NCBI GenBank assembly: GCA_018873225.1
Contig: JAEILZ010000010.1
Span: forward strand, 124,001 to 188,000
DNA length: 64,000 nucleotides
DNA from: [Phialemoniopsis] sp. UDSM-2020
Lineage: Eukaryota; Ascomycota; Sordariomycetes; Thyridiales; Thyridiaceae
Direction: 5' to 3'
Part shown: positions 13,540 to 38,705 of the stretch, in pieces
Position numbering within the stretch: position 1 is the stretch's first letter
Layout of the letters: each line of letters begins with the position of its first letter
Notes under the pieces: model-generated
Databases searched by the model: none
Seen by the model: the letters and a program-made list of their open reading frames with translations, nothing else
What the model was told of the DNA's origin: nothing
Position numbers and translations under genes: made by a program

Positions 13540-13758
13540 AGTCGCATAAAGCACCGGAAAAGACCCTGAAGGCTTTGGGTGCACTTTGTGCCCTCCCGCT
13601 GATTGGGATTGCTGCGCATTGAGCTGTTAGCTGCCTTGCAGCAGCACACCGCCTTTCAGATTGAACACTCTGCTAGGCACCCGACAGCGGTCTTCAATGT
13701 TCACTAGGTTCCACAACAGCCCTTGGCTGTCGGCATCATATCGTTCCATCTTCCCACT

Positions 13759-15565: not shown

Positions 15566-16408
15566 ATGTCTGGACAGGCCTCGCGCGGACCTCGCTACCC
15601 TACTCAAGGTTGGCTCCTGCCCGACAATAATGTCGACGTAATACCGCAGGAGTTCCGAGACCAAGTCGCCGTACAGATGAAGCTCCGGTTCTTGCGCCAG
15701 TCTCGGGAGAACGCCGGTTCTGTGACAAGCCGAAACCGCCTTATGAATCGCATCATCCTCGAAATCCGCCTTCGACACAACCACGGTCGGTACACTGGCG
15801 TGTCCCTCGAGATTGCTCCCCGAGAGAACTCGATTTATGTCAATCCCCAGGGCAATGGTCACTACCAACTCGGCATTATCAAGATCGCACCTATTGTTGA
15901 GGGTCAAATCTGGGATCCTTCCAACAGGATCTGCCGTATCAGCGCACGCCAGGGCACGCGTCCGACGCTCGACTTCCTCCTCAATGACATGCTTGCCCTC
16001 GCGGAGCTTGATCAGTTCTCATTTAACGTCGTGTCAGGTACAGAGAAGCGGGGTTATCGCGACTGGTGGTAAGTCCTGGCTGCTGAAACTTGGTCCTTTT
16101 ACAATGCAACCATTCAGGCTCTAACAGACTTTTTGTAACATAGGACGCAGTACTTTGCCCGTCTATCGCGAGGAGGCGTCATCTCTGGCCAGGTCCGGCA
16201 GCACTCGTCTTCGGATAGGCCTATCGAAGGATCCCGGGACATCTTCAGCATCCTCTTGAACCGCTGGGTCAGCAATCCTCTGGGCCAAGGAATCCCAGCT
16301 GATCTCTGGACTGCCTACTTCCACTTTGCCGATCGCTATGCACCGGCACAAGTGCTCACTGCGCCGGATCAGGAGTCTTCTGGTTCGGACACCGAGAGAG
16401 AGGAGTGA
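15566..16408 (+). CDS. Unrecognised protein, RDW-intron family member 1
   Basis: Exons 15566-16068 and 16144-16408 give 255 aa. I do not recognise a known domain. It belongs to a family with four other members in this window (31.2-38.7 kb). Shared features are an N-x(3)-N-[IV] type block (NRLMNRIILEI), a beta-strand-like QLGIIKI segment, NRIC, FSF, then GYRDWW. A phase-2 intron follows, after which the next exon opens TQYFARLSRGGVIS. The C-terminal region has NRWVSNPLG, matching the LGxRxxxxPxG block of the others, and ends in an acidic tail with Ser-Asp repeats. No signal peptide or membrane segment is visible, so a cytosolic or nuclear protein is likely. The ATG at 15566 is chosen because it lies downstream of a TATA box; the open frame upstream begins with TTG. 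Confidence 0.75.
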
Positions 16409-16966
16409 AGGGTAGACCTCCTTGAATGTGCCGCACGCAAGCGCACTGATTTCCTTTTTTGGGGCAGCTTAATGAAACACCTAGACAGCTGCGAATAAAA
16501 GTTTCTGTTTCGTCATGTAGGGTACGCTCAGGCTTGAGGGTGATGCATCTAGAGATTTGTATGGGTGTGATGACTTCCCCAGAGAGGCGAAATCAAGTCT
16601 TTAGCCGGGTGCCCTGCAGCAGATATCGCATTTAGACAAATCAGGAAGTGTAGGTAAGACCGGACACGCGTTTTGGGTACTTGAACTCGTCTCGCGTCTT
16701 TAGATACGGAGTAGTGCTTACTCTGCGGGTCGTAGGGCCCAAGATCGCCAAACTCGCACAGATGCTTCAGCCAAAAAGATCAAAAGATGACAAGTTACAT
16801 AGCTGGATGCTCTGGAGAGTCCCAAAACTTGAAATCTCATTTGGTCTGCATTTAGTAACTGGACAAAAGAAGACAGAGCTTGTTTCAGTCGCGCATACAG
16901 AAGCTTTGACCTTGATCCTCACTTCACTGTCGGCACTTTGACACCGTAAGCTTCACCGCCACAACC
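16409..16966. other. Intergenic region
   Basis: 3' flank of the RDW-family gene and promoter of the GMC oxidoreductase. An 86-codon frame (16681-16941) has no homology that I recognise. Nothing else was seen. Confidence 0.45.
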
Positions 16967-18825
16967 ATGTCTCCCACCAAAGAGGCAGACTACATCATCG
17001 TCGGCGGCGGCACCGCAGGTCTTGTCGTCGCCAACCGCCTCTCAGAGGACCCCTCCGTCTCGGTGCTCGTCCTCGAGGCCGGCGCCGACCTCTCCGCCGA
17101 CCCGCGCGTCAACGGGCCCGCGCTCTTCCTGACGCTCTTCGACACCAACGCCGACTGGAGCCTGCGCACCGTCCCCCAGGCCAACCTACGTGGTCGCGTC
17201 TTCGCCGAGCCACAGGGCAAAGGCCTAGGCGGCTCGTCCGCCATCAACGGGCAGGCGTTCGTCGCGCCCGCGGCGGCGGGGATCGACGCGTGGGCCGACA
17301 TGCTGGGCGACAAGGGCTGGGGCTGGGACGCGCTGAGGCCCTATTACAAGCGATGCTACACGCTGACGGAGCCGGACGAGGAGACGGCGCGTCACCTGGG
17401 AGTGGACTGGCTCGGTGAGGTGGACAAGGGCACTGATGGGCCTCTCAAGGTGTACTTCCCCGGCGTCAAGGAGAATCCACTCAGTAAGGCGTGGGTCGAT
17501 GCTTTCAAAGCCATGGGCAAGGGCACTACTGGCGGTATGTTCTCGAGGTCCTTTCTAATGCTGAAGAGCAAGATGAAGTAGCTGACACAAGATTAGATCC
17601 GTTCTCGGGCAAGTCCGTCGGCGGTTACAACAGTCTGGCGACTGTGGACCCGGTCGAAAAGGTCCGGAGCTACGCCTACTCGGCATATGGTGCCCCGGCC
17701 CGGAAGAGGCCGAATGTGAGGCTGATCACACAGGCCATGGTCCAGAAGATCGTGTTCTCGAAGCCTGACCAGAGTGGTGCCGTACGGGCCACAGGCGTGC
17801 AGGTGTCGATCGAGGGAGGAGCTACCGAGATATTCACCGCCAAGAAGGAAGTCATCCTCGCCGCCGGTGTCTTCCATACACCCAAGATTCTCGAGCTCTC
17901 GGGCATCGGCCAGAGGGACGTGCTCGAGAAGCATGCCATCCCCGTCGTCGTGGACAGCCCCGGCGTGGGCGAGAACCTCCAGAACCACCTACACACAGCC
18001 GTGAGCTATGAGGCCGCCGACGGCGTCGTCACCGTCGACTCCCTGATGAGACAGGAGCCCGAGGCCATAGCCGAGGCGCAGAGACTCTACGTGGAACATC
18101 GCAAAGGGCCCCTCACCATCGGCGGACTACAGTCTCACGCATTCATGCCGACCCCCGCCAACGGGCGCGCTCGGATTGCCGAAATCTTGGACAAGCACAC
18201 ACCCTCGGTCAAGGACGCCGATTTCATCCGGGCCCTACGCTCCATCGTCGAGCGAGAGGACGAAGCCAGCGCGGCGTGGTTCGTCTTCCCCGCGCAGGGC
18301 AACCTGCACGAGGAGTCCAAGGGCAAGCCCCGGATGCCGCAGAACTTTCTCGCCTTCGCCCTGGCGCAGTGCTACGCTTTCTCGCGGGGCAACTGCCACA
18401 TCTCGTCGGCGGACCCGAGCGCGCCGCCCGCCATCGACCCGCGGTACCTGAGCCACCCGGCGGACCTGGAGCTCATGGCGCTGCACCTGCAAGAGGTCGA
18501 CAAGCTGCGGCAGCAGGAAGAGCTGGCGGCGTTTCTGAAGCCTAATGGCGCGCGGAATCACCCAGACTCGTTTCTCCTGGATGACCCGGAGGTTGCGCGA
18601 AAGTACACGGTGGACACGGCGACGTCGACGTACCACAGCTGCGGGACTGCGGCGATGCTGCCTCGCGAGAAGGGCGGAGTGGTAGACTCGAAGCTGGTGG
18701 TCTACGGGACGGAGAATCTGCGTGTCGTAGACGCGAGCGTGTTTCCGCTGATCCCTCGAGGAAATATCCAGAGCACCGTGTATGCTGTGGCTGAGAGGGC
18801 GGCCGACATCATTAGGGGTCTTTGA
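16967..18825 (+). CDS. GMC-family FAD oxidoreductase
   Basis: Exons 16967-17534 and 17597-18825 encode 598 aa. The N-terminal dinucleotide motif GGGTAG starts at residue 14. The GMC signature FAEPQGKGLGGSSAINGQAF follows near residue 80, and the second signature GVFHTPKILELSGIG is in the middle. The catalytic His536 is in STYHSCGTAAM, and the partner position is Asn579 in PRGNIQSTVYAVAERAAD, a His-Asn pair as in choline and some alcohol oxidases. No signal peptide is seen, which argues for an intracellular enzyme rather than a secreted aryl-alcohol oxidase or glucose oxidase. It should oxidise an alcohol to an aldehyde or ketone with FAD; the substrate is not predictable. Confidence 0.92.
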
Positions 18826-19805
18826 AAGTGGAGGCTGATGTCATGGAAAAGGGATGGGAAGGACTTAGAGTTGGGCACAGAGGATTTTGACTCGAAGCAA
18901 TGCATCTCATCATTACACCTGATTAAGACATAAGAGTCCAGAGGCAGTCATTTTGGCAGGGGGCTGTAGTGATGTGAATGGTTTGCTGTGAAGTGTGTGT
19001 ATGGCCTTGTGTTGTGGCCAGGGAATTGACTTCCAAACATCATTTGCTCTCCAGGCCAATAATTTGCCCTGAATGCTCAAAAGATCGCTACAAGCTTACC
19101 AAAAGTAGCGCCAAAATGTATCATAGAATGGGGAAGCTTGCGGCGAGTGGCAGTCGACCAACCCGATTCTTATTGCTCTTTTGGGACGACTTCATCAAAC
19201 CAACGCCGACGTCTGTAAAGACCTTGCATACGCCGTATTCGTACAATGAGATCGTAACTCCATGTCTCTATGATTTTCAAGTACCACAGAATATTACTTC
19301 CAAGGCCACGAATGCATTGCCTCGTTGTTGATGAAAGATCAACGTCGGCATCTGGCGTCGTTCATCTCCAAGCTACAGGGCTGAGCGTCGCCGCTACCCC
19401 CATGCCTTGCTTGCTTGCTCTCAACTGCTCTTACACATCCGCGGGTCCCGCTCGTATTCGAATGCGAGCGAATCAGCATCGTCGCCGTCGGAGTTGCGCT
19501 CTCCACTCTCTCCGACAACCTACACAAGGTCAACGCCAGGATGATGCATCCGGGATCTGAGGTCGGCGATGTCTCTGGAGCCCGAAGCATGGCAATGTAT
19601 GGCTATGTCGAACGAATACGCGGAAATAGGCATGAGCAGTCTCACCAGCTGTGGGGTTGTCGGGGTTTACTATGTATTTAACGGGCATAAGCTCCCGCTT
19701 GAATGGCGGTACTCCATCCGGACATCCCGTGTATCAATCTTATTTCGACTTCGTTCATGCAGCTATAATAGACTAGACCGCCCTCTTCTTGACTGAAACA
19801 AAACC
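18826..19805. other. Intergenic region upstream of a secreted peptidase
   Basis: About 1 kb without a supported gene. Several overlapping short frames exist on both strands, none with domain motifs. No tRNA-like fold or repeat was recognised. Confidence 0.45.
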
Positions 19806-21650
19806 ATGCGATGCACCAACTCGGGACTTCTGTCCCCCTTTGCTCTCTTCAGCACCTATCTAGCCTCGACTACAACCGCGAGGACACTCGGCTCTCGAGA
19901 CGATGGCTACCCCACTACAAACAAGACCAGCATCAACTGGGGGCCTTGCGACGACATAAACTCGACCGTGCCAGTGCAGTGCGCCTCCATCACACTACCG
20001 ATCGACTATTCGAGCAACAGCTCAGGAGCGACGTTCGAGCAGCCTCTGCTCAGACTCCAGGCTAGCAATGGCAAGTCAAAGGGGAGCATCTTGATGAACT
20101 TTGGCGGACCTGGAGGAGAGTCGAGGAATACCCTGGCGGGGATGGCGCCTTCATTGAAGATGTAAGTTCTTCTCGAGTCGGATTCGAGACTCGTCTGGTA
20201 TCCTGACATCAGTTGTCTGCACAGCATGAGCGGCGGCGAACACGACCTGATCGCATTCGACCCGCGGTACGTATTTTCTTCATGAACATCCACTTCTTTG
20301 TACACCACGACTGACTTCTTTTCGATACAGTGGCACCGGCAAGAGCCTCAACTTCACCTGCTTCACAGACCCCAACGAAAAAGCCAGCGTGCTCGCGAAA
20401 TACCCCCCGGCCCTAGGCAACTCCTCCGACACAGCACAAGGCTTCCTCTGGGCCGTCACGGGCATCTGGGCCGACAACTGCTTCGAGGGCGGGAAAGACA
20501 CAGGCGACTTCCTCGGCACGACGTTCGTCGCGCGCGACATGATGAAGATCGTCGACGCCCTGGGCGAGGATGGCCTGCTGCGCTACTGGGGCTTCTCGTA
20601 CGGCACAGCGCTCGGCGCCACGGCGGCGGCCATGTTCCCCGACAAGATCGACCGCATGGTGCTCGACGGCGTGCTCAACCCGCACGAGTACTACAATGGA
20701 TACGAGCAGGAGCAGTTCGCCGCCACCGATGCGACGTGGTCGGCGCTCTTCCCGGCGTGCCTCAAGGCCGGGCCGGACAAGTGCGCCCTGGCGCGGCGCA
20801 ACTCGACAGCCGCGGAGCTCGAGGCCATGACGTACGAGCTCTTGGAGGGCCTCAAGTACCAGCCCATCGTTTACAACACCACCATCATCGACTACAGCTT
20901 CCTCAAGGGCGTCATCACAACCTTCCTCTACTCTCCTTCGGGCTGGCCCCTGCTCGCGGCGGGGCTCGATGGCTTGCTGCCCGGTGGCCAGATGGTCCCT
21001 GTCGTCATGGACGCCTTCATCGCGACGGAGGAGGCAGACGGTGCCCTCGATGCCAACTACGGTATCAAGTGCGGCGACAAGCACAACCGTGCTGACTCGT
21101 TAGACAAGGTCCAGCCTGTCCTAGATGAGCTGCACACGGGTAGCCGACTGCTGGGCGATCTACTCGATGGAATCACGCTGCAGTGCAGCAGATGGCGGTT
21201 CAATGCACGCGAACGATACAGCGGCGACTTCAAGGCCAAGACGCGCGAGCCCGTGCTCATCGTGGGCAACACGTACGACCCGCTGACGCCGATGGTCTCG
21301 GCCAAGAACGTGAGCTCCGGGTTTGAGGGCAGCGTAGTGCTGGAGCACAAGGGTTTCGGGGTAAGCTTTTGATCTACGTGAAATGCAAGAATGAGAAAGA
21401 AAAGCTGACGATGATATCTACACAGCACGCTTCGATCGCCATGTTCTCGAGCTGCACGGCAGCCACTACAGCGGCCTACTTTGTCAACAAGACTCTGCCC
21501 GAAGCTGGTGCATCCTGCGAGGTCGACACGCCCCTTTTCGAGCCGCCGCCAACCAACGGTACTGCGGGCGCGAACTTGGGCGTCCAGCAGCGGAGTCTTA
21601 AGGGCCTGTCTGTGTTCGCCAGGAACGTTCCCCCCTTGCTCCGAGTCTGA
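19806..21650 (+). CDS. Secreted alpha/beta-hydrolase peptidase (S33, TAP-like)
   Basis: Four exons (19806-20161, 20225-20266, 20331-21360, 21426-21650), the second only 42 bp long, give 550 aa. An N-terminal hydrophobic stretch (LLSPFALFSTYLASTTTA) is a likely signal peptide, and several N-x-S/T sites suggest glycosylation. The oxyanion segment NFGGPGGES, the FDPRGTGKS motif, and a Ser222-Asp449-His477 triad (GFSYG, NTYDPLTP, GFGHAS) define the family of bacterial tripeptidyl aminopeptidase-like S33 peptidases, abundant in fungi. The last intron falls exactly before the catalytic His codon. It should cleave N-terminal peptides outside the cell. The 42 bp exon makes naive gene models likely to fail here. 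Confidence 0.92.
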
Positions 21651-21985
21651 TGTATACACGGCGTGGAATCAGGACTTACGACATCCTCTGTACAACATGT
21701 GTGCATACAATATTTCCTACGCATTTCACGGAGTTGTTTTTCTTTCTGTGTTATAATGGTATTGTGAATACTCTTCCGTATTCGTGTATTGAGAAGAATG
21801 GTTTGCGGTAAACCATATTACTGTACCGCTGCTCTTTTTGCAAAACAATACCTCCATCCTGTCTCTTCATAGAATGTTCATAAAAGATCCATGCGAAATG
21901 GCAACTAGATAGACCAATCCCTCCCTCTTTCTTCCAGGGTTTATATAGAAGATATCCAAATAGAATTAGAGAAGACAAGAAGAGT
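21651..21985. other. Short convergent intergenic region
   Basis: 3' flanks of two tail-to-tail genes; A/T-rich end sequences only. Confidence 0.5.
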
Positions 21986-23415
21986 TCAACCCTCCATCCT
22001 CGGCGAGTCCCCGAGGCCAGGCAGGTCGACCTGCCTCCGCACCCACGAGACGGCCTGCCTCCCCTCCGCCGAGGCCATGTACAGCCCGGACCGCCTCAGG
22101 ATGTCCGAGATCTCCTCGACCATACGCCGCCCCACCGACCGCGCCCACCATGCCTCGGACCCGAGGTTGTGCAGCAGGACGCCCCAGTACAGCAGAAAGT
22201 ACAGCGCCATGGGCTCGCGCTCCTGGATGGCGCGGGGGAAAGGCGGGCCGCAGAACGCCGGGAAGCCGAGGCAGTAGCCCTTGATGGCGTCGCGCTTGTC
22301 CTCGGCGAAGCACACGACGATGTACCCGACCATCTGCTTGTACTCGTCGTGCGTCGGGTTGCGCTCGTCCTGCGGCCTCTCGTCGTTCTCGCGGCGCGTC
22401 TGCTCGCCGAGCAGCTCCGAGTTCTTGTCGTTGATCTTTTGCAGCAGGCCCAGGGCACTGATCGTCTCGTCGCTGAGGTGCTCGCGCGGGTCGGCCGTGC
22501 CCAGGGCCAGCGCGGCCTGCAGCGAGGGGGCGTAGTCGCTGTTGAGCAGGGTGTCGAAGTCGGCGAACGCGATGACGAGCATGCCGTTGAGCAGGTCGAA
22601 CATGCGCGCGGCGTTGGCGAGGGTGCTCTGGCGCTCGAAGCCGTGGTCCTCGAGGCACTGCGGGATGGCGATGTTGATGACGAGGACGAGCCCCGAGCAG
22701 ATGTAGAGCAGCGAGATGTTGTCCTTTGTGATGTTGGACAGGTTGGCGCGGAAGCCGGCGCTGGCGCGGTCGTTGTACTCGAGCGCGATGCGCAGGTACT
22801 TTGACGACGGCACCGACGAAGAGGGTACTGGTGGGGGTGGCGCACCCGCAGTTCCGGCCGGGGGTGAGGATGATGAGCCGGGCGACGCCGTGGCGGCGGC
22901 CGGGGAGGACGTTGCGGAGGTGGGTGCCGTGGTGGAGGCGACCTCGAGGGCGGTGAAGGCGATGATGGTGTCCATGACAAAGGCATGCTGGTAGCCCTTG
23001 CGCGGCAGGACGTTCTGTATGTAGTGCTCGTCCTCCTTGATGGAGCACATGCTCTTGTAGGTGTGGGTGGACCAGCGGTGCATGAGCTCGAGCTCGAGCA
23101 GCCGGCGCTCCTCGGCGTCGACACCCGAGCTCCCGGGCGCCGACTGCGCATGCTCCGGCGAGGAGCCGTCACTCGCGGCGGGGCGCGGCTTGATGGACTT
23201 TGTGCCGTCTACAATGACGTTGTAGGTGCAGTCCAGGCCGCGGATCTTGCAGTTGGCGCAAGGCGGTCCCGTCTCGTCACACTACACAGAAGGGGAACCC
23301 CCTGTCAATCCCGGGATAAGAAAAGGTGAAGGGCAGAGGTAAATACCTTGACATGCCTCCTCTTACAGCTGGAGCATCCTTTCCGCGACTTTCTGTGGGA
23401 TATCCGTTTGAGCAT
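21986..23415 (-). CDS. Zn2Cys6 transcription factor (C-terminal fungal TF domain)
   Basis: Exons 23415-23347 and 23281-21986 give 454 aa. The intron splits the zinc cluster immediately after HVK; joined, the six cysteines are Cys14, 17, 24, 31, 34 and 41 (CSSCKRRHVKC, CANCKIRGLDC). The remainder starts with EERRLLELELMHRWSTHTYKSM, characteristic of the PF11951-like fungal regulator group (UPC2/sterol-uptake-control-like), where the metal cluster is followed directly by this helical domain. A low-complexity Ala/Ser/Pro/Thr tract (about residues 120-160) interrupts it. Target genes are unknown; the tail-to-tail neighbour is a secreted peptidase. The start has a good fungal context (GCCACCATG). 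Confidence 0.9.
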
Positions 23416-24597
23416 GGTGGCCCTTGGGGTGTGAGCCGGCTAGCTGAGCAGTAACCAGGCCGGGCCTGTTCTCATGATGTGGTCCCTTTCAGACTCATAA
23501 GATCAAGGTTTGGCGCGCGCCTCGCAGTTTCACAGTGGCCTACTTGAAGGTATTGAGGCACTGTCTAGCGACTGTAAGCATATCTCGCTTTCCCCGATAT
23601 CAGCACCTTATTTTGACGAGGGCGCGCGCGTGAGAGGGAGAGCGTGTCTAGATGGATGTACGTCACTTGTTGGGCAGTCGGTCGCTTGTCTTGCTTGGCC
23701 TTAAGCGACGGGATTCAGAAAAGAGGGCAGCACTGACGCGCGCAATGCGAGCCCTGTAAAATGTGGCTGTGCCCCGTTTTGGATTGTGAATTCCGTAGTG
23801 CCAAGAATAGGCTCAACCTAAACCCCACCTCGCCGCGCCTACGGGGTGTGCATTCGTCGTTGGCGGATGTCTGTCTGCCGCCAAGAGACAGAGGGAGCGC
23901 AAATATCTCCTTTGACGCGCGCGCGGTGATCCTCACTCTTTGTCAGCCCCCGGTCACCATCACGGAAAGGGGGAGGGACTCCGAAAGGAGTGCCTGGGTG
24001 GAGTGAGGGCCGGAAAGATGGAGAGATAGGCAGCGGAATACGATAAACACCTGGTACTGGTAGGGCTCGGCAGCCGGACGGGGGAGCCCAAAAGGGTTAC
24101 ATTTGGCAGGCCATCCCGACGTGGTGGTCGCTTTGATGACCTTGCAATAGCGATCGACAGGGCTGGCCGCCGGCATTGGTCCAGACCTTCCCCGGGGCTT
24201 CTCCTACGGTACTGGAAGGCCACCTGCATCGTCATCATCAGCTTCACTGCTTGTAACACCATCACCACCTATCACCTCCGTAAATCAGCGTGAACCATAT
24301 CGTCACGCACACTTGCAAATGGATTGCTCCATGAGTGATCTCAATTGTCCATTTTTGATGTCATGCCATTGGTATGATGAGTCTTCCGTGTAACACCGTG
24401 GCCAAATGCAAAGCCTGCCAAAAACCCCAACGCAGAAGTTTGTTCCCGTTGTTGACTCTCCTCCGCCGGCTTCCCCAAACCCTTTTGGGACCATTAAGTC
24501 TCTTTATTTAATTTTTCGAGATCCTCTTGGCAAGCCCAGACACCCCCCCGCATCATCATGTCGTATCCCCTTTGCTCCTCCAAATGCGATAACCACT
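23416..24597. other. Intergenic region, promoter of Zn2Cys6 gene and 3' flank of uL14
   Basis: About 1.2 kb with no supported gene. It contains several alternating GCGCGC runs (near 23515, 23620, 23735 and 23918). I see no RNA gene. Confidence 0.45.
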
Positions 24598-25706
24598 TTA
24601 CATGACGACACCGGAGTTGCTGGCAATACGGGGCCACAGCTCAGCAGCCTCCTTGCCGACGGGGCCGGTGATGGCAGAGCCCTTCATCTCACCCTTGGGG
24701 TTGACGATCTGCGCAGAGGTATTGTTAGTCTTCTGTCCATGCGTAACGTAGTGGGAATGCCGCGACGGGAGATCTGGCGAGGGTCGTTGGGACAAAAAGG
24801 AGGCAGCGTATTCCACCACCATCCCCTCATTCAGGTGATAATGTGCGTGGAAACCACGACAGGTCCTCCAGCATCACATCACCCCCGTCTCGACGTCCCA
24901 GATATCCCTAGCAGATCTCCCCTTCGCAGTATCCCTCGTTCGTCGTTGGCGGAGCGGCGGGTAAAAACTTACGACACCAGCGTTGTCCTCGAAGTACAGG
25001 AAGACACCGTCGGTGCGCTTCCAGGGCTTGGACTGGCGGACGATGACGGCGGGGTGGACCTTCTTCCTCAGCTCGGGCTTTCCCTTCTTGACAGTGGCCA
25101 TGACCATGTCACCGACACCGCCGGCGGGCAGGCGGTTCAACCGGGCACCGATACCCTTGACGGAGATGATGTACAGGTTGCGAGCACCAGAGTTGTCGGC
25201 GCAGTTCATGATGGCACCACTAGAGTAGAGAGACAAATGTTAGTTTTGGCCCTGTCGCATTCTTTCATCCGTGTCGCGATCGTTTCGTTTTCGAGATCGC
25301 TCGATGAACGGTTCGTCTGGAGGGAAACGTACACTGGGAGACCCAGGGTCATCTTGAGCTTGCCACCGGGGGCACCACGACTGTGAGAAGAGTTCTGTCA
25401 GCGAAAATTCTCCATTTCCTCCTTGTTGTCCCACGCCCGATCGATCCAAACGAATGACGGTATTCCGAAGCTGAGCACGACGAGCATTTCCATTCCAACA
25501 AAGAGTCGCATTGTTGCCGCAAATTGTCGTTCTGCCGGATTTTCTACCCACAAAGCTGTCGCCCACGGTCTTTTCCCAGCTCTTGAACATTCCCAGCTTC
25601 GCCCACCCCGCCCATGCTCGTCGTGCCCAGTCGAAATCGTCGTGTGTAATGGAAGAATCGGTCGCAGACAATCGGACAGAGGTTCGACTTACGAAAGCTT
25701 GGCCAT
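24598..25706 (-). CDS. RPL23: Ribosomal protein uL14 (60S L23)
   Basis: Four exons on the minus strand (25706-25693, 25380-25333, 25219-24973, 24708-24598) give 139 aa, the exact eukaryotic length. The first exon is only 14 bp (MAKL plus two bases). Conserved segments are [60 protein letters not shown] and the C-terminal [13 protein letters not shown]. The protein sits at the subunit interface of the large ribosomal subunit, binding 25S rRNA next to uL3 and eL24. A large first intron (312 bp), as here, is common in fungal ribosomal protein genes and often affects expression. The gene is intact and a strong marker for the window. Confidence 0.97.
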
Positions 25707-28172: not shown

Positions 28173-28641
28173 CTTGTAGTAAATGTGTGCAGAAAGAAAA
28201 TAAAATCTACCAACAATCACGGCTGTCTCGATGATTATCAAGCGTAGAGGAAGGATGAGGAGTTTAAGCAGTGTCGTTTGCTGCGAGGTGTGCTGCCTGG
28301 TGGGGTGAAGTCGATGGTGATCACGGAAGTGGGGAAAACGATGCGTCCTCACTGACGACCACCATCGATCAGCCCGCGCGTCGACGACTTGCATGTCGAA
28401 ACACTTGCCTGTTTGGGAATGTCACAAATGAACAGGAGTCGTGCATGGATTGAAAGGAGAATTTCATCATAACGGCTACATAAAACTAATGCAGCGCTTT
28501 TGTATATCTCGTTATTCCGTCAAAGTGCACGGAGGGTTCCTCTTGATGGTGGCTTGGGTCAAGGCCCAGTAGACGGGCGAACGTATCCTCGAACCAAGCT
28601 CGTGTTGGCTTGGAACGACTTGGGGCAAGATTGAACAATCA
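28173..28641. other. Intergenic region upstream of the S9 peptidase
   Basis: Promoter of the minus-strand peptidase and 3' flank of the CCCH gene. No other feature was seen. Confidence 0.5.
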
Positions 28642-30170
28642 CTATTTGTTAATCTGTTCTTCGGTTCCATCCTCGTAGGCACGGATGGCCGGGGTCTGTT
28701 TTCAACTCCATTAGCATCGAAGACATGTCGCAATGGTAGGAAACTCACAAGCTTGACATGATGCGTGTCTGCGAACCGGCACTTATGCTGGTTGTCGCAA
28801 TTCCGTCCATATCGGCAGTGGTGGCCGTATGGGCAGTTGATATCCCGGCAGTCGGTCATCTTATAGCAGCGCAGTCCGCGAGACTTGTGCTTGAGCACAA
28901 GCTGCTCGGAAGGGTTAACACGCTCGCCATGGAGATAAGCGCACTCGTCTTCGTCTGGGCAGGTGCCCGATATATGGTAATTGTTGCAGAGCCGTCCATG
29001 GAGTGCAGCTCTCTCATTCAAGCGTTTCGTCACGGCTGGGTCTGACCGCATCAGCGGCTCGTCGAGGCGCTCGCGGTCGACATTCAGGACGAGGAACTTT
29101 GGTGGCTTGGGCTTCTTGGTCGGAGCGATATCGATAACCTTGTTCTCACTCTTAACTTTACCAGCAATGGCGTAACTTCCCGTAGATGAGGCCCGCTCAG
29201 ACGTGGTTCGCTTGGTAAGAACAGTTGGTGAGGCTGGAGAAATTGGTGTAGTCGGAATAGAGACAGGGCCCTTGTCGGGCAGCGGCTCGGAACGAAACAC
29301 TTCCTCAAAAGTGGCGCGAGGGAATCGAAGCTTTTGGAAGCCTGGGCCAGCTGGAGTAGTTTCGAGTAGAGTAAGCTTGGAAGCGATGGCAACTTCGAGT
29401 TCATAAGGCTTTAAGACGGGAAGGTATCCATTATCGTGGCAGGGCCCGAAAATAATATGGCGGCACTGCGCATTGCGAATCATGACACGCAGCATCTCTC
29501 GAATCTTATGGTCAGCCTGCTCCTTGCCGGAGCCAACGTCAACAAAGCAGAATAGCGGCTGGGTGCGTCCAAAAGCCCTGGCAAAGTTGGCAAGGTCGCT
29601 CGTAGAATTGATGAGGTCGATGCTCTGTAACTTTCTCGATAGACCATCCTGATTGAGGACAACCTGGACGACGATGTTCCAGGACTCGACATTGGTGTCG
29701 GCATAGACCTCTTTAAGATGCTTCTTAATGGCTGACTGTAGTAAATGAGCGGCCTGGGCACCGCCGGCATCGCCCTGGGCGATCAAGTCCTCGCGAAAAA
29801 TAGCTCCATCGCCGTCGATGATTGCATATACCATGGGATTAGATTCCTGTCACATGGAAATTGTCAGTCTGGTGGTTATCTCATCAAGGACACGAAGCTG
29901 ATTTGGGGGATCCTGATCTGGATGACTCACTGTTACATGTTTGATCTCGGTCAAATTGGTCTTTGCTTCAGTGGCCCGTTTGTGCCACATGCGTCGCGAA
30001 GTGACCTCATTCTCGAGATCGTCGCATTTCTGCTGATATTGCTCCAGGAGATGCGTGTATCTGCTCACTAACTCGGTGACCATCTCCTCTCGGTCGTGGT
30101 CTGCTTGACGAAATGAGATAAGACGAGCCCAGTAGGCTGAGCCGTCAGTGAAGCCCGGCGGGATGCTCAT
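28642..30170 (-). CDS. CCCH zinc-finger protein with coiled coil and NYN-like domain
   Basis: Exons 30170-29931, 29846-28749 and 28695-28642 encode 463 aa. Residues about 20-75 form a charged heptad-like stretch (coiled coil). The next domain begins MVYAIIDGDGAIFREDL and contains FCFVDVGSGKEQADHKI and HIIFGPCHDNGYLPVLKPY. The spaced acidic residues resemble a NYN/PIN-type nuclease fold, which I infer. A canonical C-x8-C-x5-C-x3-H finger (CNNYHISGTCPDEDECAYLH) follows, then two more Cys/His-rich units (CYKMTDCRDINCPYGHHC, CDNQHKC). The protein is probably RNA-binding and may act in mRNA turnover. The short last exon gives the ending AYEDGTEEQINK; reading through the intron would replace it with unrelated sequence. 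Confidence 0.87.
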
Positions 30171-31219
30171 GCTGGGCGAGGTTGTTTGATCTGTTTGTGC
30201 GTGAGATTTAGGAGTGGCTCATGGCGGCCTAAAAGCTGAGCGGTGTGCTGGGGGTGATGCGTCTGGTAACAAGGGGCAAAGGGCGGAGAAGCTGGCAAAG
30301 ATAAAAGCGATGCGATGAGTGTCGATGTGGATCTAGGTGCGATCGGGTTCATTCGACCAGGTATCTAGGCACCGGAATGGATGGTAAAAGTGAGGTGAAG
30401 CTCACTCAGAAAAGAGTTCAACCTTGCATGTTGTTTGCTGCATGTGTGGAGGGGTATTCCGGCGATGAAATGACCCAATGAAATTTGAGCACGTCCTACA
30501 GGGGGGAGAGAGCTTGGGCCCCGGCCGTTTGTTGCCTTCAGGGGTGGTACTAGCGCTGCCGATGGCCTTCCACGGTGTCAGGATTGTCAGCAGATAAGAT
30601 CCGAGGATTGATGACTGGACGACTAGTTACCGTCCTAGGATGCGAAGCACCGAAAGACAGCACTTTGTAGATTTCAATGATATCTTGCTACCTGAGAATA
30701 CATGCTGCATGCTATGATATTCTTGGATGGCATCGAAGCGTAAATTGACCGCAACCTTGCGCCAGCCCCTGATGGTTTCTTGCAAGTGTATTGCCCACCA
30801 ATCACGTCCAACAAGATCCGTAGAAACCCCGAACAACTCTGAGCTCCATCTTGGCTTCCTTGCCATGTACCTCTTTGATGGTGGCCTCGTGTGGATGGCA
30901 GCGATGTTCCCTTCCTTGATAGCCGTGGTCAAGTGCCTGATCACCGTCGAAGATCCTCGCCACCTCGAGACTCATTCCCTTGGTGCAATAACATCCACTT
31001 TATCAATCCCGGTACGTGGACCGAGACACGTCGGCTCCCCATAGTCGATCTAATTATCCCAAGGAGCCACGTTGTTGTCTTTCAGGGGTGATCGAGCATA
31101 GATCGCCAGACTCTAAAACCCATCTTGCCATCATACACGGCCATGACAGTCTTTGAGCTAAGCGCACGCTTCGAGGAGATTCGTGCGGCTCTGTGCCGAG
31201 AGCTGGTTCAAGTATGTCG
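30171..31219. other. Intergenic region with an unassigned open frame
   Basis: Promoter of the CCCH gene, then about 700 bp with no assigned gene. A minus-strand frame at 30627-30944 (105 codons, no ATG at its 5' end) reads like protein in places (STDLVGRDWWAIHLQETI), but I could not find its other exons. It may be a gene remnant or a missed exon. Confidence 0.4.
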
Positions 31220-32193
31220 TCAAGATTCTAGTTGCTGAAGCCCTGCCATCTGGTAACTTAGCTGAGCATATGCGGATGAACCGGCGTATGGCATATTGCA
31301 GTCCTTGATGCGAGGGCAGTCGGGGAAGCAGCCAGGGACTATAGGATTCGAGAAGGCCATGCCCAAGGGGTCATCAACGAATCGCATTCCAAGCACAGCG
31401 AAGATACAGGTCGACCAGAGCGTCTGCCCTCGTGGTAGCGTGGACTGGATCGTGCCATGTATGACGCCTGCTTTGACAAGTTGATAGAGGAATTGGGTTC
31501 TGTTTTGAAGAGATGATTAGTAAAGTCTAGCTGAAACAAAGTCGTACGGACGACAGAAAAAAGGCGGATGAATGCTTACATGAAGTCGCGGGATCCTCGA
31601 AAGATGTCGTTTAGAACCGTGAACGCAAAAGTCTGCAGCCGCCGACTGGTCAGAATGGCAAGAAAGTAGTTGAGAGAGACGCCATTGGTGATCTTCAGCG
31701 TGCAGGTACGAGACATCTCTGCCGTCTGGTATAGCATATCGAATGGCTGGACCAAGACTTTGCCGGGCTGCGCCGGAAATCGACCCACCCATATCGGATC
31801 AGCAAGCAAGTCGGGGGTGACTCGAATACGGACCCCGAGACAATCAGAACGAGGTATGTTCAATACCAACTTGAGCGCAACGTCGTTGGAGAGCTCATTC
31901 TCGACGCTGACAATCTCGCCGCTCAAGTTTCTGGTGTCGAATTCAACCGTGACTTCGCTGACAATGGATGCAAGCAATTCTCTCGGCATGCCTACTGTCC
32001 CAAGTCGAGTGATGTTATAGCCCTCTGCAGGGACTAGGTGTTCGAGAACGTTGACTTCTTGAGCTGAAATAGACGGTACACAGAGGGCGAGGGGGAGTGA
32101 TTTTGGCGGAAGACGGAGCGTGGGTTGAGTTGGCTCAGGCCGTTGGTGGGTCTTTTTGCCCTTCGAGGGGCGTTTGCTCTGAGTCTGGCCCAT
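31220..32193 (-). CDS. RDW-intron family member 2, predicted N-myristoylated
   Basis: Exons 32193-31580 and 31499-31220 give 297 aa. The N-terminus MGQTQSKRPSKGKK has Gly2, Ser6 and following basic residues, the pattern for N-myristoylation and membrane attachment; no other member in this window has it. Family features are NELSNDVALKLVL, a strand KVLVQPF, SRTC, FAF and GSRDF, then a phase-2 intron. The second exon opens TQFLYQLVKAGVIHG and contains the block LGMRFVDDPLG. The C-terminal extension is Cys- and Pro-containing (VPGCFPDCPRIKDCNMP) and lacks the GHFEEY block of members 3 and 5. The ATG is the first in frame. Function unknown. Confidence 0.72.
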
Positions 32194-32825
32194 TTTGGTA
32201 CATCTTTCAGTGGGATATGAAATGAATATGCGTGACAATATCGGGAAACTGGATAGATTTGCTTGTTGCTAGGGTCAGAAACGAAGGAAAGAACCGATAA
32301 AAATACTTGAATATGTTAAGAATGGTGGTAGTGACACAAGTGCCGTGATTCAAGGCCTGGCAATTGAATGAGATAGAGAGGCAACTCGGACATCGTTGCG
32401 CTCGTCACGGCCATCACTTATTACGCGCTTAATTTTATCGGTAGTTCCAATCGAGAGATCAAGCTTGGTATCATGCTAAGAGACATGACTGTCTGCCAGT
32501 AGAGCGTTGCGTGGATCGCGGATTGGCCATATATGATCTGCTGACGATGGAGATGGGCCTTTCCACCCACTGAAAAGGGGAAAACCCCTCAAAATCCCAT
32601 GTCATAGCATCTGTCGCAAAGATTGGCAATGTTTTCCGGAATCAATTCAAGCGTTCTATACATTCTATAGGTAAAATCTCCAGAAGTCTACGAGGCGAAA
32701 TCATTTCCAGGGAGGCAAGCAAGCTCCCAGACTAGGGCCCTTCTCGGTCGTTAGTCCGTCGTCTTGTGGTGTAGAGCAATCCATTCCGCGCCGTGTCAGT
32801 CACGGTCATTGTACACAGCAACAGC
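32194..32825. other. Intergenic region
   Basis: Promoter of RDW-family member 2 and 3' flank of the EF-hand gene. Nothing else was seen. Confidence 0.5.
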
Positions 32826-33624
32826 CTACAGCTCCGGGTGGGGACGTCCACTCTGACGAGGGCCCTGCTGGATCGGGCTGTCCGAGTCATCCTCAACCTG
32901 CTCCCGCATCTCGTCGACGGTGATGACTCCGTCAGAATTCTTGTCGAACCTAGTAAAGAGCACCACGCGTTAGCACGGCCCGGACCACACCACAGAACAT
33001 AATAAGGCGGTCACTCACTTGGCAAAGTACGCCTGGTAGTCCTCGTCGTCCTTGGCGCCGACAAAGCCCAAGAACTCCTCGTAAGTGAAGTGCCCCTTGC
33101 CATCCTTGTCGACCTCGGCAAAGATCTTCTCGTCACCCTCGGGGCCAGTGAAGCCGGCCTCTTCGAGGCTGGCCAGACCGACAGCCTCCGTCTCGGCGTC
33201 CATGTTCTTGAAGATGTCCTCGGTCGAAACAGACTCATCGGCCGCGCCCCTGAGCTCTGCCGAGCTGCGGAGGCTACTCTTGGTGCAGATCACGATGGGC
33301 TTGCCCGGTGCACCCACGCCCCAGCCTGGCTGATGTTAGACCTTATATGAACACAACACCACGTCGAAGTATTGGGATGACCTACAGATGGGCAAGTCCA
33401 TTCCCTTGCACTGTTCTTTGGGTTTGCAGCCTGATGGTCGCTGTGTCAGCAGAAGGTCCTATTGACAGTAATGTGCCTGGAACGAACGCACCTCCATTGC
33501 AATTGCAGCAAAAGATGTTGCATTTTCCCTTTCCACAGCAAGAAGTGAGCTTGTCCTGCTTGCAGCAGGCCATGGCGGCGGGCACGATGGCCAGAAGAAT
33601 GGCGCAGAAGGTCGAGGTCTTCAT
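32826..33624 (-). CDS. Secreted Cys-rich protein with C-terminal EF-hand pair
   Basis: Four exons (33624-33492, 33430-33386, 33325-33019, 32949-32826) give 202 aa. Residues 1-19 (MKTSTFCAILLAIVPAAMA) are a clear signal peptide. The next 60 residues hold 12 cysteines in paired and spaced arrangement (CC, CC, CNIFCCNC, CKPKEQC, ICWG, VIC), likely all disulfide-bonded. The C-terminal half has two EF-hand loops: DKDGKGHFTYEE, with a non-standard Lys at loop position 5, and DKNSDGVITVDE, which is canonical. It could bind Ca2+ outside the cell. I know of no standard family with this order. Very small second exon (45 bp) and three introns make it easy to mis-annotate as two separate short genes. An effector-like role is inference. 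Confidence 0.78.
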
Positions 33625-34785
33625 CTTGACTTGCGTGTATGGGTCTGACGACTTGAAGCGTGGAGTACTAAATAGATAGAAACGAAGAGGATAGTGTGTT
33701 AGTATATTGTGTGATCTATGTTCTCTGGGAATCTGCGGATGCTTTATATCTTTCTCTGCGGCGTATGAAGCCCGTGACAAGCCCCGAGGCGGGCGGAGTT
33801 TAATGACGATGGTGGTTTGGTCTCGGCCGCTAAGCTTCTGGTCTGGCCGAGCATCGCAGGGTCCAGGAAGCCGTGCGGGCTATGCTGTGGAACAGAAGCT
33901 TGTCTCGGGCCGGGGTAGAAGGACCCCTGATTCTGGTGCCAAGATCTCAGGGTATGCCCGATCGTGTGCTCTGTTGTTTTTGATCGCCGCTTATTGCATG
34001 GCGGGGAATCCCGTGGTGGGCATCTTTGCCGGGCTCCACTCTAAAAGCGAAGCTTTTCCAGCTGCTGAAACGGCTGACCACTAAAAGGCCCGGGGCACAT
34101 CCCTGCTAAGGTTGCATAGCTAAGCAGAGTTTACTGGCTCGGAGTTCACCGAGCAGAAAGAAAATGCCCAGCAAGAAAAGCCACTTCATTCCAAGCATCT
34201 GCAGTGCGCGGAGTTTTGACGCAGGTGCGGACATCAAATAGCCTATTTCTTGTGGAGACAAAGGTGCCCAGGAAGAATGACACCCATATGATCCGCTGGT
34301 AAGTTATGCTAGCCTTTCCTTTGGTGGGATCTCACTCAAGGCAAGCTTTGATTTCCGCCTTCTTTCTCTCCAAAAGATTGTGCGGTGTTTTCTTAGATTA
34401 CTATGAAGTGCTGATCCCCAGTTATGGGCCGTTCAGACTCCGCATCCTCACATTCTTGTCGTGACACAAGCGCCACGGTCATCATCTTTCCGTATATTGC
34501 AGCATATGAACACGTACATGGATCATAAGATCACATAAAAATGTCACAACAAGGGGCGTGGTTCAGCTCTCAGCAGCATGTGAGGATGCATCATGATGTT
34601 TGCTTCTGCCAAAAAATAAAATGTATTGCCGTTCCAAAACTGAGGAGCATGTCTGAAAGACGTTTCCTTAATACAACCCCTGATCGTTACCGCCGGACTG
34701 GGTGTAAGTGGATAGGGGCCTAGCCAGAGTATGAGGTAGGTGGCTCTTCAATGTCATGCCCTTCTTCTTCTCTTCATGCCACTGT
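33625..34785. other. Intergenic region
   Basis: Promoter of the EF-hand gene, with a TATA box on the minus strand at 33742-33748, then about 1 kb without a supported gene up to RDW-family member 3. A 125-codon plus-strand frame here has no recognisable motif. Confidence 0.45.
33742..33748 (-). promoter_or_regulatory. TATA box of the secreted EF-hand gene
   Basis: Reads TATAAAG on the minus strand, 118 bp before the ATG at 33624. Confidence 0.4.
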
Positions 34786-35623
34786 CTACTCACCATCTTG
34801 ATATGGCATGTACGGAGCAAGATAGCGCTCATACTCCTCAAAGTGACCCTTTCGCATGCGACACACCTCCGCCATTCCTCTCGGATTGTCAAGATACCGC
34901 GCACCAAAGTAATCCCAGATTATGCCTGGGAAGAACGGAAGTCCACCATTGTCTTGGGTCGGCGGTGGGTTTGTGAAGGACACTTGCTCAGTGAGCAATT
35001 CCTCATTATTCAGGCATTGGACTACCTGGCATCTGTTGCACAAAACGACAGGTCAGTCAAGGATTTTGAACGTCTTTGCTCCGTTCTTGGGTTGCAAGAA
35101 ATGAAGAACAAACTTACGCCCAATCGCGACTACCCCGTGGCTTCTCATTGTCCAAACAAAATTGGAACTTGTGTAGGCGATGGTAAATGATGTGATCCAG
35201 GACGTCATGGACTGAGAAGTCCGAGGCTAGGCCCAGGTAACATGCTCGATTATCTGTAGGTACCTCTGTTTCCTTGTCGTCGGGCACTGCCGCAATGTAC
35301 AATTCGCTACCCACGTGGGTCGCTCGCGGCTCCCTTCGTGTTCCGGGCTGTATGTACAACAAGAGTTGCGAGTAATCCGTACCTCGGAACTCGTAGGTGC
35401 CATCTAGTTGGAGCTCGAAATGGACCGCATTGGTTCGGTCGTTGTGAGCCTTCACGAACTCGCTGTCGGTCGCTCTTTCCGAGAATCTGCAGACAAGTGC
35501 TCGGACGTTGCAGTCTCGCCAGGCCTGAGGGTTGTCTTCTAGGGGCGACCTGGAGAGATTCCACCGTGGAAAGTTCAAGTCGTAGAGCGCAGGCTCTATT
35601 CCATTGCTACGTGGTTGGCTCAT
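34786..35623 (-). CDS. RDW-intron family member 3
   Basis: Exons 35623-35118 and 35032-34786 give 250 aa. The family pattern is visible as DRTNAVHFELQL, the strand SELYIAAV, NRAC, RLHKFQF and GSRDWA, then a phase-2 intron. The second exon starts ACQVVQCLNNEE where others have TQ, and contains YFGARYLDNPRGM. Its C-terminal block RKGHFEEYERYLAPYMPY is nearly the same as RMGHFEEYDRHLDPDMAY in member 5, the strongest pairwise match in the family. An in-frame ATG exists 162 bp upstream, but it lies before the TATA box at 35707-35715, so I use the inner ATG. No signal peptide, membrane segment or known domain is visible; function unknown. Confidence 0.72.
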
Positions 35624-36234
35624 TGTGGCGGTCAATATCGCTAGTGAGGTCCACAAGAGATACTCTGCTTGGCAGGAATTGAAGTCAACCGTGGCATTGG
35701 GGAGTGTCTTTATATACCTGCGGTGCTCTGAGTTTGCGCTTCGCTCGCAGTGGTGTGAATCACGGGATGTCTTCCTATACACCATATGTCATTAGCAGGT
35801 TTGTTGGTGAGTATTACGCTGTCAGTTTATGGTGTCACTGGTTGTGATGACGACTGTGCAGGGCGTGTTGTTTGCTCAAAGAGACACAAGGTACTTAAGT
35901 AGGTAACAACAGGAAAACGCAGGAGTGTGATGAGACTGAAGTAAAAAGAAGTGACGGTATCAGGAACTGAGTATTGTCGACATAGCGCAGATTTGCATCT
36001 GGTTCTTGAATTATGCTCATCTCGGATTTGTTGGCAGGTGTCACATCATGATAATTAGTGATTCTAGCATCGTCAAAGCCCGTGACAAGTGTTGTTAGAT
36101 CAACGTCGCTCTCGGAGAGCTTGTATTTGCCTCCACTGGCTCCAAAATTGCTGCACTTCATTGAAATGCTAGCTCAACCAAAAAGTAAAAGTCTTCGCAG
36201 CCATCCGCACCCCCGGACCACACCCACTAAAGAC
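35624..36234. other. Intergenic region between RDW-family members 3 and 4
   Basis: Promoter of member 3 and 3' flank of member 4. An 88-codon minus-strand frame (35895-36161) is open but has no shared motif, so I leave it out. Confidence 0.45.
35707..35715 (-). promoter_or_regulatory. TATA box TATATAAAG of RDW-family member 3
   Basis: Strong TATA consensus on the minus strand, about 85-90 bp before the ATG at 35623. It also decides the start choice for that gene. Confidence 0.5.
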
Positions 36235-37131
36235 CTATTCGGCGTCCTCGTCGTAGTAATGGAAGCCATTTGTCACCACAGGAACTTCGTCGTCAGGATG
36301 GGAGCCATTCGTCACAGGAAGTTCATACTCTGGGGCATATGGAAATTCGGCAGACTCGTTGCGAGGGTGGTAACCGAAGCGACCCCTCTGAATCAGACAT
36401 GGAACCCCCTCGCCCCGCGGTTCACAGATGTAGCGCCTGCCCAACACTTGGAGAATGTTCCTGCTATGTAGCTCTGGCACGTTTGGCACCGATGATTGGA
36501 TATCAAGGCTGATGATCCTGTAACATCGAAGGATCTCTAGTGCTTGAACCCTACAGGTGAATGATGGTGATCAGCCGCTTGTGCCATATCCGTGATTGCA
36601 AAAGGGTACTTACATCCAGTCACGCATGCCCAATATTGGCCGCGTGGGGTCAAAATAGAACGAGAACAGTTCCAGTCCTGCGGTGACCAGGGACGTCACC
36701 AGGGTGCCGAGCGAGATGCGGTCGTCGAGGAGCCTCAGTAAACAAAGTCTGTTGTAGGCAGGCCTAACAATATCGTGAGACCAGGGCATGACGATCAAGG
36801 TGCCGCGCTGATAAGAAGGTTCGTTGGCATAGAAACTGGCAAGACACATCTGTATGAGGATCCTGTCGTAGTTGGCGTAGTCGATGTTGAACCCTGCTCG
36901 CACCTCGGCCTCCAACCAGAGGACGTTGCGAAACTCGTTGTCAGCTGTGACAGGCTGCCCTTCTAACGAAGAGTCCGAGAAGTAAAGCCGTAGTCCCGTA
37001 ATAACCAGGTCTTGAACTTCTGGAGGGACGGCCAAAGATCCATTCTCGGTGATGTTCCATTGAGGAACGGCGGGCAAGTTGCCGTTATGCAAAGAGCCTA
37101 GAGATGTTGTTGGGGACTGTGACGAAGACAT
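36235..37131 (-). CDS. RDW-intron family member 4
   Basis: Exons 37131-36614 and 36550-36235 give 277 aa. Family features are NEFRNVLWLEAEV, the strand GTLIVMPW, NRLC, LFSFYF and GMRDWM, then a phase-2 intron. The second exon opens VQALEILRCYRIIS and has LGRRYICEPRG and RGRFGYHPR, the counterpart of RxGHFEEY in members 3 and 5. The C-terminus carries an imperfect internal repeat (ELPVTNGSHPDDE and EVPVVTNGFHYYDE) and ends in an acidic run. Gene 5 is divergent from it across a 681 bp promoter. A TATA-like element lies at 37219-37225. Function unknown; no signal peptide or known domain. Confidence 0.72.
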
Positions 37132-37218
37132 TTTAGCCTGTCAAAGTTCGATGGGAAGCTCTCAGCGTTGTAAATAAATTCATGCTTGGGAAGGAGAACT
37201 GGAGAGTGTTACCTTTAA

Positions 37219-37225
37219 TTTATAA
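37219..37225 (-). promoter_or_regulatory. TATA-like element of RDW-family member 4
   Basis: Reads TTATAAA on the minus strand, about 90 bp before the ATG at 37131. Confidence 0.4.
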
Positions 37226-37737
37226 GCAATAGATGTGTCAGTCCCTTGCTGTCACGCAGAGCCGAGGGCAAAGGGGTTACGTTGGCGACTCGATGCACGG
37301 CTGTGACAAGATTTCTAGTCCCAGAGCCAGAACAATGGACCCTAGTGCCTACGACGGGCGGTAGGCTTGAGTTCCGGGGCCCTTCAGCCAGCTATCTCCC
37401 CTCGGATGGGAAGTGATTCTACCAAACAAATTTCAACAGATCCAAATCTAATACTAGCTTTACCATCCTCACCACCTCCGCCGGCACTGAGTAACCTGGC
37501 CACCCCCTCGTCGCGTTCACAGCCTTTAGCCAGTCCCTGCTTTTCCTTTGACATTCTGGTGTCGAACAAGTCGGATGCAATGCAGAGTCGTTGGGAATTG
37601 TGGCGCCTCCAGAGTTCTATCGTCCCAATCGAGGTACGCGAATCACTCCTTCAGGACCCGTACTGGTAACAGGTTGCACGGGTTGTCATACCACCAGGCT
37701 AACCAATGTGCAACCCATTCGCCCATCATGTATGCAC

Positions 37738-37744
37738 ATATAAA
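37738..37744 (+). promoter_or_regulatory. TATA box ATATAAA of RDW-family member 5
   Basis: About 70 bp before the ATG at 37813, the same layout as the TATA boxes of members 1, 3 and 4. Confidence 0.45.
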
Positions 37745-37812
37745 CACCGACAGAACACTCCTCCGTCATTCAGGCCTCAGCACGTTCAACCACTCACCCT
37801 ACAACATACAAA

Positions 37813-38705
37813 ATGTCGCAAGACGAGGGCCGGTCTACGATGTCAACAGACGCACTGTCGTTGAGCAGCGAGTCCGACGGCTCCGAGGGATATCTCATGT
37901 GGAATCTCTCCGAGATGGAGCCGACAGACGTCGCCAATCTACTGCCAGATGCCTTCCGCAGGACCATTATCACGCGTTGGCGCGCCCTCTTCACTAGGAC
38001 TTCGCAATTTGAGGAGGACATCGTCGCGGCGGATAACAAGTTCGGGAACATCGTTATGATCGAGATCCTTTTCAAGCAGCCTTACGAGCACGAGGGCGTG
38101 GCCTACCCCAAAGCGGTCATCCAGATGACCGGCGGCAAGGAGCCGGGTAGCCAGCCTTCCCACGTCAAAAGCCAGCTCAGGATTGTGCCTCTACAGAGCA
38201 CCTACGACCTGCCGCATCTCAATCGAGTCTGCACGATCACCAACCGTGCGGAATGCACGGTCAACTACCTTGTCTCGGTCATCTTCCGGCACCGACTACA
38301 CAAGTTCCAGCTCTTGCTCGAGGGTGACAAGAAGATTGGCATTCGTGACTGGATGTAAGTCAAGGTTCCATACCTAGCTGGACGTTCCATATCGCTAACG
38401 TTTTATTCCCACACCACAGGACGCAGTTCCTCTGGATCCTGAGAGAAGAGGGCGTGATTCATCATCACGTCTCGGCACCTCTTCCACCTCCCGCTCATGC
38501 CCTCCTTCCGACGTACAATATTTTGGGTATTCTTGGGTACCGCTACCTGCGTGAGCCTCTCGGCCAGGAAGACCGTCTGCCTATCCGCATGGGACATTTC
38601 GAGGAATACGATCGCCATCTTGACCCGGACATGGCATACGACACTATAAATACGGCGACAGTCTTGTCACACGCATCCGTTGACTCAGGGAATGTCGAGA
38701 CATGA
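37813..38705 (+). CDS. RDW-intron family member 5
   Basis: Exons 37813-38354 and 38420-38705 give 275 aa. An acidic Ser-rich N-terminus leads into LMWNLSEMEPTDVANLLPDAF. Family features follow in order: DNKFGNIVMIEILF, the strand SQLRIVPL, NRVC, RLHKFQLLL and GIRDWM, then a phase-2 intron. The second exon opens TQFLWILREEGVIHHH and has LGYRYLREPLG and RMGHFEEYDRHLDPDMAY. It is the most complete member and a good query for searching. No signal peptide, transmembrane helix, zinc-binding pattern or catalytic motif that I know is present. Two domains separated by the intron seem likely, the first rich in predicted beta strands. Function unknown. Confidence 0.75.

What the first reader, a model, noticed from the sequence alone, without database searches (positions are those of the whole stretch)
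15566..38705. Five-member, highly diverged gene family with an invariant intron after a G-x-R-D-[WF] motif
Genes at 15566-16408, 31220-32193, 34786-35623, 36235-37131 and 37813-38705 encode proteins of 250-297 aa that are hardly alike overall. They share, in order: N-x(2,3)-N followed by alternating hydrophobic residues; a short hydrophobic strand (QLGIIKI, KVLVQPF, SELYIAAV, GTLIVMPW, SQLRIVPL); NRIC, SRTC, NRAC, NRLC, NRVC; F-x-[FL]; and GYRDWW, GSRDFI, GSRDWA, GMRDWM, GIRDWM. A single intron, always phase 2 and always splitting the codon right after RD[WF], separates this from a second block (TQ[FY] in three, then a [RW]x(4)PxG block). Four have a TATA box 70-110 bp before the ATG. The reading frames and introns are preserved while sequence has diverged strongly, which fits rapid evolution under selection, as in effector, self/non-self or host-interaction families. 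I know of no described family with this layout.
Basis: partly seen in the sequence, partly recalled or inferred. Interest (0 to 1): 0.86.

Follow-up and report, generated by a model that had tools for sequence, protein, structure and literature searches.

The report
Clustered dead-enzyme-like fungal protein family
Six neighbouring fungal genes encode very different-looking versions of one protein that appears to have kept the shape of a fat- or protein-modifying enzyme but lacks the residues that such an enzyme needs to work.

Summary
All five gene models, the shared motifs and the phase-2 intron directly after RD[WF] are there. The proteins are true homologues (E down to 3.9e-13). A sixth gene with the same intron lies 2-3 kb left of the window; no other convincing copy was seen in the 44-Mb genome.

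Best reading: intracellular pseudoenzymes on a permuted papain-like scaffold. A secreted-effector reading is not supported, as no member shows a signal-peptide-like N-terminus.

The parts
15566..16068 (+). g1 exon 1 (ends GYRDW + 2 nt)
16069..16143 (+). g1 intron, phase 2, 75 nt
16144..16408 (+). g1 exon 2 (255 aa in all)
15454..15459 (+). TATA-like box of g1, -112 (a second at -44)
31580..32193 (-). g2 exon 1 (ends GSRDF + 2 nt; N-terminus MGQTQSKRPSKGKK)
31500..31579 (-). g2 intron, phase 2, 80 nt
31220..31499 (-). g2 exon 2 (297 aa in all)
35118..35623 (-). g3 exon 1 (ends GSRDW + 2 nt); best DUF7770 match, E 4e-4
35033..35117 (-). g3 intron, phase 2, 85 nt
34786..35032 (-). g3 exon 2 (250 aa in all)
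35711..35716 (-). TATA-like box of g3, -93
36614..37131 (-). g4 exon 1 (ends GMRDW + 2 nt)
36551..36613 (-). g4 intron, phase 2, 63 nt
36235..36550 (-). g4 exon 2 (277 aa in all)
37219..37224 (-). TATA-like box of g4, -93
37813..38354 (+). g5 exon 1 (ends GIRDW + 2 nt)
38355..38419 (+). g5 intron, phase 2, 65 nt
38420..38705 (+). g5 exon 2 (275 aa in all)
37739..37744 (+). TATA-like box of g5, -74

Best explanation
The genes are a locally duplicated family of six (five in the window, one 2-3 kb to its left) that forms a remote branch of the DUF7770 group. The proteins most likely have a circularly permuted papain-like (NlpC/P60, LRAT/CLN5 type) fold: a five-stranded sheet, a helix, a strand, then the helix that begins at G-x-R-D-W, where an active enzyme of this kind carries its cysteine. 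The DUF7770 model favours Cys at x, His after an Asn near the start of strand 2, and a Tyr in the strand before the Cys helix. All six members lack the Cys and the His and have Phe for the Tyr, while the framing G, R, W/F and N stay fixed. So the family most likely works without thiol catalysis, as intracellular pseudoenzymes that use the old active-site cleft to bind a ligand or partner (acyl group, lipidated protein, or a catalytically active relative). They are probably expressed from inducible TATA promoters. Shown: homology, intron, cluster, absence of Cys and His at the aligned positions. Supported but not proven: DUF7770 kinship and the fold. Inferred: loss of catalysis, the binding role and the mode of expression.
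Confidence: 0.62

Rival explanations
1. The proteins are still enzymes: the nucleophile has moved, for example to the conserved Cys of the NRxC strand, and another residue serves as base.
For: C128 (g3 numbering) is kept in five of six paralogues and in P0001. Active-site migrations are described for papain-like proteins (PMC10318531, passages).
Against: The sixth member has Leu there. Only one column holds His in three or more of seven rows (D,Q,H,E,H,H,H) and it is not universal.
Confidence: 0.12
2. Fast-evolving host-interaction or self/non-self proteins, whatever their fold.
For: 19-34% identity between neighbours that keep intron, frame and motifs; TATA-like boxes; a cluster of six; a small Cys-rich ORF with a hydrophobic N-terminus lies between g2 and g3.
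Against: No signal-like N-terminus in six of six. Of ten neighbouring ORFs scanned, seven match ordinary families and three match none. No measure of selection was possible. Deep divergence also fits old duplications.
Confidence: 0.2
3. The structural resemblance is a common alpha+beta arrangement only; the family and DUF7770 have an unrelated fold and the missing Cys and His say nothing about catalysis.
Confidence: 0.22

Closest known systems
Pfam DUF7770 (PF24968), unknown function
   Same: Collinear core from the NRxC strand through G-x-R-x-W to a tail with G-x-F; sub-cut-off HMM matches in three of five window proteins.
   Different: Below Pfam's cut-off in all tested; Cys and His favoured by the model are absent, and the favoured Tyr is Phe, in seven of seven sequences; fixed Asp after Arg.
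CLN5 (human S-depalmitoylase / BMP synthase), PDB 6r99
   Same: Best structural match of two models, about 150 residues.
   Different: 2-6% identity. CLN5 is lysosomal and extracellular (PMC9686302, passages), while these have no signal-like N-terminus and no Cys/His pair.
DUF6540 (PF20174), CHH-triad papain-like family (PMC10318531, passages)
   Same: Two members in this same genome carry an HW motif and a [ND]CQxW motif that resemble N-H-W and G-C-R-x-W.
   Different: No significant profile match to this family (hhalign E 0.014, probability 3%).
LRAT / HRASLS / YaeF-YiiX permuted NlpC/P60 enzymes
   Same: Element order, and where the Cys helix would start (PMC3142127, passages).
   Different: No sequence match; catalytic residues absent.

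Membership tests
DUF7770 (PF24968) | HMM score over the curated cut-off (24 bits) | tested here: not met
   Best 20.8 bits (g3); g5 16.6, g2 15.4; g1, g4, sixth member, P0001 none.
DUF7770 (PF24968) | Collinear domain including the C-terminal tail | tested here: met
   hhalign of the seven-sequence profile to an artificial peptide that itself scores 164.4 bits, E 1.4e-5, up to the peptide's last residue. No natural DUF7770 protein was available.
DUF7770 (PF24968) | N-H-W and G-C-R-x-W residues (recalled motif, supported by HMM score drops) | tested here: not met
   N, G, R, W/F kept; His and Cys absent in seven of seven.
Permuted NlpC/P60 (papain-like) fold | Five-stranded sheet, then helix, then helix that starts at the catalytic position | tested here: inconclusive
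Permuted NlpC/P60 enzymes | Catalytic Cys at helix start and His on strand 2 | tested here: not met
   Y,S,S,M,I,H,Q at the Cys site; no His at either placement.
DUF6540 (PF20174) | HMM or profile match | tested here: not met
   No Pfam match at E up to 10; hhalign probability 3%.
Classical secreted fungal effector | N-terminal signal peptide | tested here: not met
   Hydropathy scan: six of six lack a hydrophobic N-terminus; the window's own small Cys-rich ORF is a positive control. No dedicated predictor was available.
Rapidly evolving family under positive selection | dN/dS above 1 or presence/absence variation between close species | not testable with these tools
   Only one outside relative (protein only) was found.

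The most novel reading that the evidence does not exclude
DUF7770 is an unrecognised family of CLN5/LRAT-like permuted papain enzymes (thioesterase or acyltransferase). This cluster is a branch in which the catalytic Cys, His and Tyr were lost and the empty active-site position then diverged freely (five different residues in six paralogues between invariant Gly and Arg). That would make it a multi-gene set of pseudoenzymes that bind different acylated or lipid ligands or titrate active relatives. One member (g2) may be membrane-anchored by N-myristoylation (MGQTQSKRPSKGKK).
Probability: 0.3. Interest if true: 0.7.

Novelty: new variant of a known kind. Interest (0 to 1): 0.5.

Why it matters
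In the held library (5.39 million papers) searches for 'DUF7770' and 'PF24968' returned 0 papers, so I know of no function for that family. If the reading holds, it gives DUF7770 a fold and a testable chemistry. It also adds a clustered pseudoenzyme family, with intact genes and a shared intron, in which the dead active site can be studied beside two DUF6540 genes of the same genome that keep HW and CQxW motifs.

Tried and rejected
Family searches: PF24968 in the whole genome gave 0 candidates. The control genomes gave 0 too, and the search missed even g3, so absence of a canonical DUF7770 gene is not shown, although PF20174 was found twice by the same route. The artificial peptide also found nothing there, in genome contigs or in viral contigs. 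NCBIfam: none for the five window proteins. Solved structures by sequence: only a GTPase Der row at E 1.6.

More relatives: three protein searches gave one relative, P0001, then none. So dN/dS, a tree and a deep structure alignment were not possible.

A weak hit of the sixth member on contig C5 (E 0.139) and one on C1 (3.43) were read by eye in translation and rejected: no G-x-RD[WF] motif at the matched place.

DUF6540 kinship: the artificial peptide with GCRDW matches PF20174 at E 0.11 only, and profile comparison is not significant. Left as a lead.

Structure matches other than CLN5 (CusS sensor, immunoglobulins, PYL receptors, fluorescent proteins, EspG3) have low scores and were treated as chance. 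LRAT, HRASLS, YiiX and PPPDE chains did not appear in the VIA-align lists; the tool says this excludes nothing.

The ribosomal 5.8S search, meant to help name the species, gave nothing.

Literature: two searches for papain-like pseudoenzymes or CLN5's fold gave 0 papers and nothing beyond PMC10318531 that I used.

Full report
1. What was checked. The window is bases 124001-188000 of contig C2 (453,219 bp) of an unnamed 44.18-Mb, 11-contig genome; gene content and introns read as fungal (my judgement). Spliced models were built for the five genes. Each has one intron of 63-85 nt beginning GTAAGT or GTAAGC, whose donor cuts the codon after RD[WF] after its second base, and each model runs from ATG to stop in frame. 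Codon-position G+C is of coding type, and the introns have 40-48% G+C.

2. Is it a family? Yes. Searching the genome with single proteins gives cross-matches well beyond chance: g5 to g3 E 1.5e-12, to g4 6.5e-8, to g2 exon 2 4.8e-4, to g1 0.002; g3 to g5 3.9e-13; g4 to g5 7.7e-9, to g2 2.2e-4 and to g1 6.2e-4. The g1 search found a sixth gene outside the window (C2:120836, E 1.3e-7). Its model (L030:6803-7688, 268 aa) has the intron at exactly the same codon, GHRDFW|MQF, 79 nt. The sixth gene matched only g1 and P0001 in these searches, so it is the most distant member. The six genes cover about 42 kb. Six single-protein searches of the genome with family members, and one with P0001, showed no further convincing member; two weak hits were read and rejected. 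These searches are lower bounds by the tool's own statement.

3. Outside relatives. Of three searches of 5.8 billion proteins, the five-sequence alignment found one relative, P0001 (E 5.6e-34, 61% identical to g1); g3 alone and g5+g4 exon 1 found none. P0001 ends exactly at GQRDWW. That is what an unspliced reading of a gene with the same intron would give, so the intron is probably shared with another organism (inference).

4. Relation to Pfam DUF7770. In Pfam, g3 (E 4e-4, 20.8 bits), g5 (0.0083) and g2 (0.019) match PF24968 below the 24-bit cut-off; g1 and g4 do not, nor do the sixth member or P0001. The three matches place the RD[WF] motif at about the same profile column (inferred from the end points). 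The five reversed sequences give no DUF7770 match, though one gives an unrelated family at E 0.09. To learn what the profile favours, I wrote an artificial peptide in the style of the family as I recall it. It scores 164.4 bits over positions 1-149 of 150, and its reverse scores nothing. Single changes lower the score: His of N-H-W to Ala 7.6 bits, Cys of G-C-R to Ser 6.4 and to Ala 6.2, the Arg to Ala 5.0, the last Trp to Ala 8.1, the first Trp to Ala 5.1, the Asn to Ala 3.0, and the residue after Arg to Asp 4.7. As a control, ten Ala changes outside these motifs cost 1.2, 4.4, 4.1, 3.9, 3.6, 1.8, 3.0, 8.8, 1.2 and -1.5 bits; the 8.8 is a Tyr nine residues before the Cys. So His and Cys cost more than nine of the ten control positions. 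A profile of the window family aligns with this peptide at E 9.6e-5 (five sequences) and 1.4e-5 (seven; score 39.9 against 13.2 +/- 2.6, maximum 21.0, for 100 shuffles of the peptide). No paper in the held library names DUF7770 or PF24968.

5. The missing residues. In seven of seven sequences the Cys position is something else (Y,S,S,M,I,H,Q in g1-g5, the sixth member, P0001) between an invariant Gly and Arg. The His position is R,E,D,E,K,D,E if the first invariant Asn is the Asn of N-H-W, as three MAFFT runs and a global hhalign place it, or R,D,A,V,I,R,R if it is the second. Neither placement gives His. The favoured Tyr aligns with the invariant Phe of LxxF. NlpC/P60 enzymes are described as using a conserved Tyr (PMC3142127, passages); that this is the same Tyr is only a lead. 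No column offers an invariant His or Cys; the NRxC Cys is in five of six paralogues plus P0001. The spread of residues at the empty Cys site is not unusual in itself: 86 of 216 gapless columns hold five or six different residues among the six.

7. How it may work. With no thiol-His pair, catalysis of the papain kind is unlikely. Inactive papain-like proteins are known as scaffolds and binders (PMC10318531, passages). The proteins lack signal-like N-termini, and no 19-residue stretch exceeds a mean hydropathy of 1.46, so they are most likely intracellular. g2 begins MGQTQSKRPSKGKK, which fits the recalled N-myristoylation plus basic-stretch pattern (not tested). Four of five have TATA-like boxes, against 3.6% of random 200-nt stretches; in fungi TATA promoters are often inducible (general knowledge). 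The two DUF6540 genes of this genome (C4, C10) keep HW and [ND]CQxW, so genes of a permuted papain-like kind with both residues exist in the same organism. Whether they are partners is unknown.

8. Verdict. The finding is real and slightly larger than described. It is best read as a distant, catalytically degenerate branch of a poorly known Pfam family, not a family without relatives. The effector and rapid-evolution reading is untested on selection, and its secreted form is unsupported.

Noticed in passing
33382-33624, strand -: Small Cys-rich ORF with a hydrophobic N-terminus (MKTSTFCAILLAIVPAAMACC...), between g2 and g3; no Pfam match for the longer frame 33385-33729.
   Followed up: partly
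13723-15021, strand +: Protein kinase split over two ORFs just upstream of g1; both halves match Pkinase slightly under the cut-off.
   Followed up: partly
41600-42460, strand +: SAD/SRA domain protein (E 2e-36), a domain type known for reading methylated DNA (recalled), 3 kb from g5.
   Followed up: no
28512-29834, strand -: DUF7923 plus tandem CCCH zinc-finger protein (E 7.4e-63).
   Followed up: no
L032 (G000:C4:2230715) and L033 (G000:C10:226976): Two DUF6540 genes elsewhere in the genome with HW and [ND]CQxW motifs intact.
   Followed up: partly
32152-32193, strand -: g2 N-terminus MGQTQSKRPSKGKK looks like a myristoylation plus polybasic membrane signal (recalled pattern, untested).
   Followed up: no
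16016-16018, strand + (g1 F151) and the same column in the other genes: The most favoured DUF7770 position tested, a Tyr in the strand before the Cys helix, is Phe in seven of seven family sequences.
   Followed up: partly
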